A stretch of 64,000 nucleotides of DNA. Origin: Tenrec ecaudatus. Its lineage: Eukaryota > Chordata > Mammalia > Afrosoricida > Tenrecidae. The notes beneath the pieces are model-generated. The model saw only the letters and a list, made by a program, of their open reading frames with translations. It had not been told where the DNA came from and ran no database searches. The translations under genes were made by a program, and so were the position numbers. Positions 1,183 through 36,858 of the stretch are shown piece after piece; position 1 is the first letter of the stretch; the number at the start of each line of letters is the position of its first letter. Location: positions 130,022,758-130,086,757 of the forward strand of contig NC_134536.1 in assembly GCF_050624435.1 (NCBI RefSeq), read 5' to 3'.

Positions 1183-1375
1183 CCGTGGTTCTCAACTTTC
1201 CCAATGCCGCGACCCTTTCATACAGTTCCTTGTGTGGTGGTGACCCCCAACCATAAAAGTATTTTCATTGCTACTTCATCATTGCCATTTTGCTACTGTG
1301 ATGAATCGAGTGGTCCCTGTGAAAAGGATCGTTCAACCCCCAAAGGAGTCGCGACCCACCGGTTGAGAACCACTG
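1183..1375 (+). mobile_element. SPIN-type hAT MITE, internally deleted
   Basis: The left end (GTGGTTCTCAACTTTCC) and right end (GGTTGAGAACCACTG) form the terminal inverted repeats of the SPIN family of hAT transposons. Subterminal blocks also match SPIN, such as the GCGACCCTTTCATACAG and TCGCGACCCACCGG regions. The middle found in the longer SPIN copy at 13441-15231 is absent, leaving about 193 bp, so this is a non-autonomous deletion derivative. The flanking 8-mers, tacaaaac and gacacagc, match at only 5 of 8 positions, a decayed hAT-size target duplication at best. SPIN is known from scattered tetrapods including tenrec. Confidence 0.85.
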
Positions 1376-13299: not shown

Positions 13300-13440
13300 G
13301 GATTCTGAAGGTTGTTTTTTTTAAACAAATATATCTATTAAAAAACTAAATATATATACATATATAGGTTTATACAGGAGGAAGGAATAAAAAGTCCACA
13401 CAGCAGTACAGAGGGCTCAGTTCAACTCACTTTCGTGTAA
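13300..13440 (-). repeat. LTR-like repeat, first part before the SPIN insertion
   Basis: An AT-rich stretch followed by GAAGGAATAAAAAGTCCACA and the TTCAACTCAC block appears to continue after the SPIN element at 15232-15735. I take it as one side of an old LTR-like repeat that SPIN split. Family and orientation are uncertain. Confidence 0.4.
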
Positions 13441-15231
13441 CAGTGGTTCTCAACCTTCCTAATGCCGTCACCCTTTCATACAGTTCCTCATGTGGTGGTG
13501 ATCCCCCCCAACCATAACATTATTTTCGTTGCTACTTCATCACTATCATTTTGCTGCTGTTATGAATCGTCATGTAAATATATCTAATATGCAGGATGTA
13601 TTTTCATTGTTACAAATTGAACATCATGAAAGCATAGTGATCAATCACAAAAACAATATGCAATAGTGTGAAATATTTCTTTTTTGTGTGAGTGTGAGTG
13701 AGTGAGAGTGAGTGAGAGAGTGAGTGAGAGAGTAAGAGGGTGAGTGAGAGTGAGTGAATAAGAGAGTGAGAGAGTGACAGTGAGTGAGTGAGAGAGTGAG
13801 TGAGTGAGAGGGTGAGTGAGAGTGAGTGAGAGAGTGAGTGAGAGAGTAAGAGGGTGAGTGAGAGTGAGTGAATAAGAGAGTGAGAGAGTGACAGTGAGTG
13901 AGAGAGTGAGTGAGAGGGTGAGTGAGTGAGAGGGTGAGTGAGAGTGAGTGAGAGAGTAAGAGGGTGAGTGAGAGTGAGTGAATAAGAGAGTGAGAGAGTG
14001 ACAGTGAGTGAGTGAGTGAGTGAGAGGGTGAGTGAGAGTGAGTGAATAAGTGAGAGTGACAGTGAGAGAGTGAGTGAGTGAGTGAGTGAGAGAGAGAGTA
14101 AGGGTGAGTGAGAGTGAGTGAGTAAGAGAGTGAGAGAGTGACAGTGAGTGAGAGAGTGAGTGAGAGGGTGAGAGGGTGAGTGAGAGTGAGTGAGAGAGTG
14201 AGTGAGAGAGTAAGAGGGTGAGTGAGAGTGAGTGAATAAGAGAGTGAGAGAGTGACAGTGAGTGAGTGAGTGAGTGAGAGGGTGAGTGAGAGTGAGTGAA
14301 TAAGTGAGAGTGACAGTGAGAGAGTGAGTGAGTGAGTGAGTGAGAGAGAGAGTAAGGGTGAGTGAGAGTGAGTGAGTAAGAGAGTGAGAGAGTGACAGTG
14401 AGTGAGAGAGTGAGTGAGAGGGTGAGAGGGTGAGTGAGAGTGAGTGAGAGAGTGAGTGAGAGAGTAAGAGGGTGAGTGAGAGTGAGTGAATAAGAGAGTG
14501 AGAGAGTGACAGTGAGTGAGAGAGTGAGTGAGAGGGTGAGTGAGTGAGAGGGTGAGTGAGAGTGAGTGAGAGAGTAAGAGGGTGAGTGAGAGTGAGTGAA
14601 TAAGAGAGTGAGAGAGTGACAGTGAGTGAGTGAGAGAGTGAGTGAGTGAGAGGGTGAGTGAGAGTGAGTGAATAAGTGAGAGTGACAGTGAGAGAGTGAG
14701 TGAGTGAGTGAGAGAGAGAGTAAGGGTGAGTGAGAGTGAGTGAGTAAGAGAGTGAGAGAGTGACAGTGAGTGAGAGAGTGAGTGAGAGGGTGAGTGAGTG
14801 AGTGAGTGAGAGAGTGAGTGAGAGTGACAGTGAGAGAGTGAATGAGTGAGAGAGTGACAATGAGTGAGTGAGAGAGTGAGTGAGTGAGAGGGTGAGTGAG
14901 AGTGAGTGAATGAGAGTGAGTGAGTGAGAGTGAGTGAGAGTGAGTGGGTGAGAGTGAGTAAGTAAGAGTGAGTCAAAATATTTATTTCTAATTACAAGTA
15001 CTAAATGAAATTTTGTCCTGAAGCATGATGTGGCATGGATAACAGACTTCACACTGAGTACTTGTATGTGGGTGTATCTGCATGTGGGTGGACCACCTGG
15101 ACACGGATAGAGGAGCGGTGTCTCTGTTCTTAAGACCTGCGGAAATGTGTTTTCCAATGGTCTTAGGCGACTCCAATGAAAGGGTCATTCAACTCCCAAA
15201 GGGGTCTTGACCCACAGGTTGAGAACCACTG
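13441..15231 (+). mobile_element. SPIN-type hAT transposon carrying an internal minisatellite
   Basis: The left end starts CAGTGGTTCTCAACCTTCCT and the right end finishes with GGTTGAGAACCACTG, the SPIN terminal inverted repeats. The left arm (GTTACAAATTGAACATCATG, AGCATAGTGATCAATCAC) and right arm (GATAACAGACTTCACACTG, GGATAGAGGAGCGGTGTC) match SPIN non-autonomous elements as I remember them. The block gtgtaacag is found at 13435-13443 and again at 15232-15240, spanning the hAT-size target duplication and part of the terminus. Between the arms, about 13688-14975, lies a 1.29 kb GAGT-type tandem array that is not part of the ordinary family. No transposase is encoded. Confidence 0.9.
13688..14975. 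repeat. GAGT-type minisatellite with higher-order units
   Basis: The array is built from gagt, gagagt and gggtgagt steps, punctuated by taagagggtg, gaataag and gtgacag marks. Higher-order copying is visible. The block starting agtgaataagtgagagtgac at 14041 recurs at 14295 (254 bp apart) with near identity over about 220 bp, and again near 14667. A shorter unit starting taagaggg recurs at 13733 and 13847 (114 bp). Cytosine on the plus strand occurs almost only in gacag. The long minus-strand frames of 515 and 443 residues, made of Thr, His, Ser and Leu, are translation artefacts. Confidence 0.95.
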
Positions 15232-15735
15232 GTGTAACAGTTAATATACTGGAAATCCATCAACTCACATAGGCTGCCAGGTCCAAGGTCAAGGAAGCAG
15301 ACAGTGGAGTTCTTCCTCAGAAAAGGCAGGTGGAGTCTGCCCACAGGCAGCAGACAGCAGGGTGGGTCAGCAACAGCCAGTAACTGGGAGCTTAGGAAAG
15401 CCGGCCCGGATGGGATATGGAACTCAAGCACTGCAAGGCAGCAGGATCCATGAGCCACAGTTCAAGGGATATACCCACCAGTAGCCAGCAGCGTGGTGAA
15501 GCAGGTCTTAAAGGAACCTCAAGCTCCAGCAACACAATCCATGTGTTGGGTTGGTCCACAGGTGGAGTAGCACACAGGTTGAGGCAGAGAACTAGCTAAA
15601 GCGGCAGCATGCTGGTCTGATGACCAGGGAGCAAGAGACACACGGGCGGGCCTTGAAGAGCCATTTATCTGTCTGCCTTCCAATCAAACTGCAACTTGAT
15701 GAATCCCACATGTTCCTATAGGCCAGGTTGGCACA
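15232..15735 (-). repeat. LTR-like repeat, second part after the SPIN insertion
   Basis: This continues the element interrupted by SPIN, with blocks such as CCATCAACTCACATAGGCTG and GGCACAATAAACCCATC. It resembles the sequence style of 22395-22915 but is not clearly the same family. I treat it as an old solitary LTR-like fossil of uncertain class. Confidence 0.4.
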
Positions 15736-36329: not shown

Positions 36330-36858
36330 GCATGCATTGCTGTGCCAATGGCTAGCCCTGCCTGACTTGTTCGCACACACACTTTGCTTTGGACAATTGT
36401 AGGCTTCGTCGACATCCCTCCCTTCCTCCTCCCCTACCCTTGGATTATTTTGAAGCAGATTCTAGACATTATGTTATTTCATCTATAAATACTTAATTAT
36501 GTAGCTCTAAAAGATGAAAATTATTTTTAGAAATCCTAATTGTCATGTACACACACATAAAAACCCAGCAATTCCTTAACATAATCACATTTCTAGTAGT
36601 CATTGTTCAAATTCTCCCAATTATCTCACTCTCTTATTCACTTGTTTGAATCGGAACCTAAATAAAATCCAAACTTTGTCATTAATTGGTATATCTCTTA
36701 AATATCATAGAATCTAGTGACTCCCCCAATCATATCACTCCTTCATCTTTCCCTCTCACCTCCCGTGCTCTGCCTCTCTGTCCCGTTTTTCATTTCCATT
36801 GATCTGTGGGAGAAACGGAGTCATTTGCTGTGTTGTTTCCAATGGGAGAGGTCCCTTA
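36330..36858. other. Unassigned stretch
   Basis: AT-rich between 36460 and 36720. Some blocks (AAATTCTCCCAATTATCTCA) look like an old antisense LINE, but I cannot name it. Confidence 0.3.

What the first reader, a model, noticed from the sequence alone, without database searches (positions are those of the whole stretch)
13441..15231. SPIN hAT transposon hosting a 1.29 kb GAGT minisatellite
Both SPIN arms and inverted ends are intact in outline, and gtgtaacag sits on both sides, so this is one insertion. Its middle has been replaced or expanded into a tandem array of about 1290 bp. A tandem array several times longer than its two arms combined is unusual. It might have grown from a short GAGT seed within the element after insertion, or have been carried by a source copy and spread. 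The long Thr/His/Ser/Leu frames over it are a by-product.
Basis: partly seen in the sequence, partly recalled or inferred. Interest (0 to 1): 0.75.

Follow-up and report, generated by a model that had tools for sequence, protein, structure and literature searches.

The report
Minisatellite grown inside a SPIN transposon
A 1.3-kb run of short repeats has grown inside one old copy of a jumping gene, at a spot where another kind of jumping gene has landed in other copies; it looks like a one-off example of a known way that tandem repeats are born.

Summary
Window 13441-15231 is one SPIN (hAT) insertion: 16-bp perfect inverted ends, an 8-bp target duplication gtgtaaca (one CA shared with the left end), and a 1288-bp GT/GA array (13686-14973) between its arms. 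The host genome was searchable. None of 68 other SPIN copies fetched carries the array; its 30-base unit has nine hits in 3.9 Gb, all here. So spread from a source copy is not supported. Exact internal repeats of up to 327 bp, against arms about 78-84% identical to other copies, point to growth after insertion. New: 47 uninterrupted copies hold AAATATTTATTTCT once at this point, this copy on both sides of the array. At the same nick (TTTCT/AA) ten other SPIN copies seen carry an antisense LINE-1-like insert, and two carry only the duplication plus a T-run. Best reading: a tail-only LINE-1-type insertion (or a plain short duplication) set a GTGA or GTGTG seed beside a T-run; slippage and larger duplications built the array. 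GAGT arrays are common in this host. A new member of a known kind, TE-born minisatellites; the LINE-1 landing site is the more interesting part.

The parts
13435..13442 (+). left copy of 8-bp target site duplication gtgtaaca (last CA shared with the element's first two bases)
   Evidence: read from the sequence; 8 of 8 identical to 15232-15239
13441..13456 (+). left terminal inverted repeat of SPIN
   Evidence: 16 of 16 complementary to 15216-15231
13441..13678 (+). SPIN left arm
   Evidence: found next to the right arm in other genome copies
13671..13684 (+). left copy of the duplicated SPIN stretch AAATATTTATTTCT (12 of 14), present once in uninterrupted copies
13680..13685 (+). T-run next to the array; possible remnant of an antisense poly(A) tail, overlapping the duplication
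   Evidence: similar arrangement in L133, L138, L139, L141
13686..14973 (+). GT/GA minisatellite array with higher-order repeats; longest exact repeat 327 bp at offset 254 (13940 and 14194)
14976..14989 (+). right copy of the duplicated SPIN stretch AAATATTTATTTCT (14 of 14)
14990..15231 (+). SPIN right arm
15216..15231 (-). right terminal inverted repeat of SPIN
15232..15239 (+). right copy of target site duplication gtgtaaca

Best explanation
A non-autonomous SPIN (hAT) copy of about 490 bp inserted here long ago, duplicating gtgtaaca (shown). Later the SPIN stretch AAATATTTATTTCT, perhaps with the GTG before it, was duplicated at the nick TTTCT/AA (duplication shown, cause inferred). The likeliest cause is a tail-only LINE-1-type insertion by target-primed reverse transcription, since the same nick holds antisense LINE-1-like copies and tail-only insertions in other SPIN copies. 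This left a T-run followed by a GTG-type seed, as in L138 (T-run then GTGAAATATTT) or L007 and L139 (T-run then GTGTGTG). Slippage in 2-bp steps made a (GT/GA)n microsatellite, and larger unequal exchanges or duplications (offsets near 110, 254 and 618 bp) made it 1.29 kb (inferred from the repeat structure). It is most probably functionless.
For: 47 of the 68 other SPIN copies fetched read through the junction with the stretch once. 2 of the 68 have an insert exactly there: L014 (same locus as L007), an antisense LINE-1-like insert of about 0.8 kb, and L066, an unidentified insert of about 355 bp. The junction followed by a T-run has 21 sites in the genome, 0 in the control; 20 loci covering all 21 were fetched. 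14 of 20 have the SPIN left arm upstream: 9 with a LINE-1-like antisense 3' end, 2 tail-only with the duplication (L133, L141), 1 T-run only (L136), 1 with T17 plus unidentified sequence (L137), 1 other insert (L132). L138 holds the stretch three times, i.e. two insertions at one nick, the last one T-run then GTGAAATATTT. The stretch twice within 30 bp: 9 sites, 4 with a clear T-run filler (three of them L133, L138, L141), 3 with other A/T-rich filler, 2 plain tandem duplications. Array unit: 9 hits, all in this array. 327-bp exact repeat against mean arm identity of 84% (left, 27 of 29 copies) and 78% (right, 30 of 39).
Against: No retroelement body is left, so the retro-insertion is inferred from the duplication, the T-run and the shared site. 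The left copy of the duplication matches only 12 of 14, and its mismatches make the T-run hard to tell from the duplication. In shuffles of the two 47-bp edges a local match as good arose in 108 of 2000, so the edge match alone is weak; comparison with uninterrupted copies carries the argument. 2 of 9 short duplications are plain tandem duplications without a T-run. No stage with two GTGA units before AATATTTATTTCTAAT was found (0 sites, exact pattern). In most LINE-1-like cases the far side of the insert was not fetched, so its target duplication was not seen. The label LINE-1 is recalled; searches show only a high-copy 3' end with A-rich tails.
Confidence: 0.65

Rival explanations
1. No retro-insertion: a plain tandem duplication of about 18 bp of SPIN (TGTGAAATATTTATTTCT) by replication slippage, whose second GTGA then expanded.
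For: One site shows exactly such an 18-bp duplication without a T-run (C22:137805840) and another a longer one of about 43 bp (C62:6887667). The array's last unit before AAATATTT reads GTCA, explicable as SPIN's own GTGA mutated.
Against: 4 of the 9 short duplications at this place have a clear T-run filler and 3 more an A/T-rich one; LINE-1-like elements do land at this nick; the T-run at 13680-13685 is not in uninterrupted copies.
Confidence: 0.2
2. A larger LINE-1 insertion with a GT-rich tail, as in L007 or L139, whose body was later deleted while the tail microsatellite expanded.
For: L007 and L139 have T-run + GTGTGTGTG at the same nick, the only two exact matches to that pattern in the genome; the array's left edge reads GTGTGAGTGTGAG, GT-rich before it becomes GTGA.
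Against: No LINE-1-like sequence seen at either edge by reading.
Confidence: 0.12
3. The array is the tail of a SINE: in this host some GAGT arrays start at the 3' end of AfroSINE-like elements.
For: 6 of 20 sampled (GTGA)n arrays begin directly after a SINE-like end of the form GACTCGATGGCAGTGAGT, judged by eye, L108 the weakest (SINE name recalled).
Against: No SINE body at either array edge; in those six GAGT follows the SINE end on the same strand, so a body would be expected on the left, where SPIN plus a T-run lies.
Confidence: 0.04
4. A SPIN source copy carried the array and spread it.
Against: Array absent from the 68 other copies fetched; unit and right junction found only here.
Confidence: 0.02
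5. The array is an assembly artefact, or its length is wrong.
For: Exact 327-bp repeats are what mis-assembly could also give; no reads were available.
Against: No N in the window; imperfect GAGT arrays occur elsewhere in the genome, e.g. L110, L119, L126 (by eye).
Confidence: 0.05

Closest known systems
SPIN (SPACE INVADERS) non-autonomous hAT elements (family name recalled)
   Same: inverted ends, 8-bp target duplication, thousands of copies in this genome
   Different: this copy holds a private 1.29-kb array; other copies seen are about 193 or 490 bp
Minisatellites born in transposable elements: Ms6-hm in a mouse MaLR element, (GGCAGA)n in mouse B1 (PMC6947457 and PMC9659126, passages read)
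   Same: a short motif inside a TE copy expands into a long array
   Different: those hosts are retroelements; here the host is a hAT MITE and the seed lies at a LINE-1-type nick inside it
MITEs that give rise to or carry tandem repeats, e.g. (GTCY)n in Lepidoptera and Xstir in Xenopus (PMC9659126, passages read)
   Same: tandem array inside a MITE
   Different: here the array was found in one copy only
Microsatellites generated by retrotransposon 3' ends (RTE elements in Lepidoptera, PMC2887409, abstract read; A-rich LINE-1 microsatellites in a table of PMC6947457, passage read)
   Same: end of a truncated retro-insert as microsatellite nursery
   Different: the insert is nested in a DNA transposon and no retroelement body is left

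Membership tests
SPIN (hAT) | terminal inverted repeats of the family (motif recalled) | tested here: met
   16 of 16 complementary
SPIN (hAT) | 8-bp target site duplication | tested here: met
   gtgtaaca twice, with one CA shared by duplication and element at the left end
SPIN (hAT) | many dispersed copies sharing both arms | tested here: met
   4043 first-look candidates, 40 scored, 89-100% identical; 65 of 68 other fetched copies have both arms in order; 3371 exact junction matches
SPIN (hAT) | mobilised by a SPIN transposase | not tested
   no transposase-bearing copy was looked for
TE-born minisatellite | array younger than the host TE copy | tested here: met
   327-bp exact repeat against 78-84% arm identity; assumes no assembly error
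TE-born minisatellite | seed motif present in or at the TE | tested here: inconclusive
   GTGA precedes AATATTT in most of the 47 uninterrupted copies; a T-run+GTGTG tail as in L007 and L139 is a second possible seed
LINE-1-type (TPRT) insertion | target site duplication at a TTTT/AA-like nick (consensus recalled) | tested here: met
   AAATATTTATTTCT on both sides (12/14 and 14/14), nick TTTCT/AA
LINE-1-type (TPRT) insertion | poly(A) tail or LINE-1 body in the insert | tested here: inconclusive
   only a T-run of 6, partly inside the duplication; no body seen

The most novel reading that the evidence does not exclude
A hAT MITE spread thousands of LINE-1 landing sites (TTTCT/AA) through this genome. 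LINE-1s that land there antisense meet AATAAA in the SPIN strand and can carry a short SPIN piece away as a 3' transduction (five candidate loci), while tail-only landings leave short duplications, one of which grew into this minisatellite.
Probability: 0.45. Interest if true: 0.5.

Novelty: new member of a known kind. Interest (0 to 1): 0.35.

Why it matters
It is a case in which the birth site of a minisatellite can be read base by base, because thousands of copies of the host element show the state before. It also suggests that one DNA transposon has repeatedly served as a landing site for LINE-1-like elements in the same genome, which can be counted and tested.

Tried and rejected
Searches for SPIN outside the host genome found nothing: four patterns in viral contigs, one in genome contigs, blastn of the left arm in phages and of the right arm in plasmids. 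Spread from a source copy was dropped. A SINE-tail origin was considered because GAGT arrays are common here and 6 of 20 sampled start at SINE-like ends, but strand and edges do not fit. A doubled GTGA before the junction, expected if SPIN's own GTGA were unstable by itself, was not found (0 sites, exact pattern). The edge match taken alone was not convincing (108 of 2000 shuffles as good). The reversed-pattern control had 1 forward and 2 reverse matches, so such purine-rich 30-mers do turn up by background; the control says nothing because the repeat reads alike backwards. The genome-wide count of 3' transductions did not complete. In one search I read the wrong strand's coordinates of L008; the short (GTGA)n there lies at + 254-281 by conversion, outside its SPIN copy at 1501-1975, and I did not read it again. 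One search gave nothing.

Full report
What is there. The window element runs from 13441 to 15231. Its ends are perfect inverted repeats of 16 bp, and gtgtaaca stands on both sides (13435-13442 and 15232-15239). The left duplication and the element share a CA, best explained by loss of one CA from gtgtaaCACAGTGG. So this is one hAT-type insertion. The ends and arms are those I know as SPIN (family name recalled; PMC5857283, passage seen, says SPIN was transferred 15-46 million years ago into galago, murine rodents, opossum, tenrec and vespertilionid bats). A second copy, 193 bp and without array, lies at 1183-1375.

The array. 13686-14973 is 1288 bp, 81% purine, and every one of 221 GT-initiated tokens has even length, i.e. 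it keeps a 2-bp register throughout. It has higher-order structure, with periods near 110 and 254 bp and exact repeats of 327 bp (13940 and 14194) and 213 bp (13804 and 14422). If mutation is near 2.2-4.5e-9 per site and year (assumed), an unbroken 327-bp pair is younger than about 1-2 million years; the pair was picked as the longest, so this is a local bound. The arms are on average 84% (left, 27 of 29 copies picked by the right arm) and 78% (right, 30 of 39 picked by the left arm) identical to other copies, counting only alignments of 150 bases or more. The array therefore grew or was homogenised long after the insertion, unless the assembly erred.

The host genome. The window lies in G000:C65:130022758-130086757, genome size 3.918 Gb. 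The left-arm search gave 4043 first-look candidates with 40 scored, the right-arm search 2800 with 40 scored. From these I held 70 loci, two of them the window copy itself, so 68 others; 65 of the 68 show both arms in order, 3 (L018, L044, L074) do not. In 47 the arms abut at ..TTGTGAAATATTTATTTCTAATKACA.. with scattered substitutions, L017 lacking four bases. The other 18 with both arms were left out of that alignment; two of them, L014 (the locus also held as L007) and L066, have an insert exactly there, the rest are diverged, partly deleted or interrupted elsewhere, and of these L021, L045, L055 and L064 were not classified; L029 has an unidentified insert in its right arm. A scan of the loci held then found GAGT arrays only in the window copy, apart from one short array outside the element in L008. 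The unit GTGAATAAGAGAGTGAGAGAGTGACAGTGA has 9 hits at up to 2 mismatches, all in this array; its reversed control has 3. The right junction has one hit at up to 3 mismatches.

The duplication. In uninterrupted copies AAATATTTATTTCT occurs once. In the window copy it stands left of the array (13671-13684, 12 of 14) and right of it (14976-14989, 14 of 14). That is what an insertion with a target duplication leaves. In L007 the insert is an antisense, LINE-1-like 3' part between the same stretch; that 3' end is high-copy (3692 first-look candidates, 40 scored) and is followed by an A-rich tail and then differing sequence in the 20 loci I read. The name LINE-1 is recalled, not looked up. A pattern for the junction followed by a T-run has 21 sites in the genome, 0 in the control, against 3371 exact junctions without insert. 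Of 20 loci fetched, covering all 21 sites, 14 have the SPIN left arm upstream: 9 with the LINE-1-like antisense 3' end, 2 tail-only with the duplication (L133, L141), 1 with a T-run only (L136), 1 with T17 and unidentified sequence (L137), 1 with another insert (L132). 5 have the LINE-1-like end but no SPIN arm (L128-L131, L134) and 1 is unrelated (L143). This pattern selects for T-runs, so it shows that the nick is used, not how often compared with other sites; the sample not so selected gives 2 of 68. For most of the nine the far side of the insert was not fetched. Nine sites hold the stretch twice within 30 bp: 4 with a clear T-run filler (three being L133, L138, L141), 3 with other A/T-rich filler, 2 plain tandem duplications. 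L138 has it three times, with a LINE-1-like piece between the first two and TTTTTTTT before the third, which continues GTGAAATATTT. That last arrangement is what the window copy may have looked like before growth: T-run, GTGA, AATATTT. L007 and L139 offer another seed, T-run then GTGTGTGTG, and they are the only two such sites at exact match.

How it most likely arose. Insertion of SPIN; later a tail-only LINE-1-type insertion at TTTCT/AA, or a plain short duplication, leaving a T-run plus a GTG-type seed; slippage in 2-bp steps; then duplications of 100-600 bp. The left edge, GTGTGAGTGTGAGTGAGTGAG, goes from GT-rich to GTGA, which fits growth from that side. The insertion, the duplication and the internal repeats are shown by the sequence; the cause of the duplication, the seed and the order of growth are inferred.

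Context. (GTGA)8 has 4176 forward and 3711 reverse overlapping hits; the 100 rows listed fall in 20 places, so there may be roughly 1600 such arrays (my extrapolation). 6 of these 20 places start at an AfroSINE-like 3' end (L108, L113, L115-L118, by eye, SINE name recalled). The motif is thus common in this host, and an array of it inside a SPIN copy is not in itself remarkable.

Compared with what is known. Minisatellites that grew inside a TE copy (Ms6-hm in MaLR, (GGCAGA)n in B1) and MITEs giving rise to tandem repeats are in print (PMC6947457 passages; PMC9659126 passages); TEs account for at least 7,276 or 23% of human minisatellites and satellites in PMC3389668 (passages). Searches (open-licence full text only) listed no paper whose title or abstract start describes a SPIN copy with a tandem array; I did not read most of the papers listed.

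Verdict. Observation right, interpretation half right, kind known. Interest 0.35. The LINE-1 landing site and its possible 3' transductions are the part worth a follow-up.

Noticed in passing
L128, L129, L130, L131, L134 (genome G000): LINE-1-like antisense 3' ends preceded by a short SPIN piece but no SPIN arm, with T-rich sequence before the piece (a C-run in L134): candidates for 3' transduction using AATAAA in the SPIN strand as poly(A) signal.
   Followed up: partly
L138: Three copies of the SPIN stretch GAAATATTTATTTCT in one element: two insertions at the same nick, one LINE-1-like, one tail-only.
   Followed up: partly
L108, L113, L115, L116, L117, L118: (GTGA)n arrays starting directly at the 3' end of AfroSINE-like SINEs; SINE tails may seed GAGT microsatellites in this host.
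   Followed up: partly
window 1183-1375: A 193-bp SPIN copy, a shorter deletion form without array.
   Followed up: yes
window 36624-36642, minus strand: 19-bp exact match to a unit of the array in non-repeat sequence; perhaps chance.
   Followed up: no
L125: A SPIN copy ending about 20 bases before a (GTGA)n array that lies outside it.
   Followed up: no
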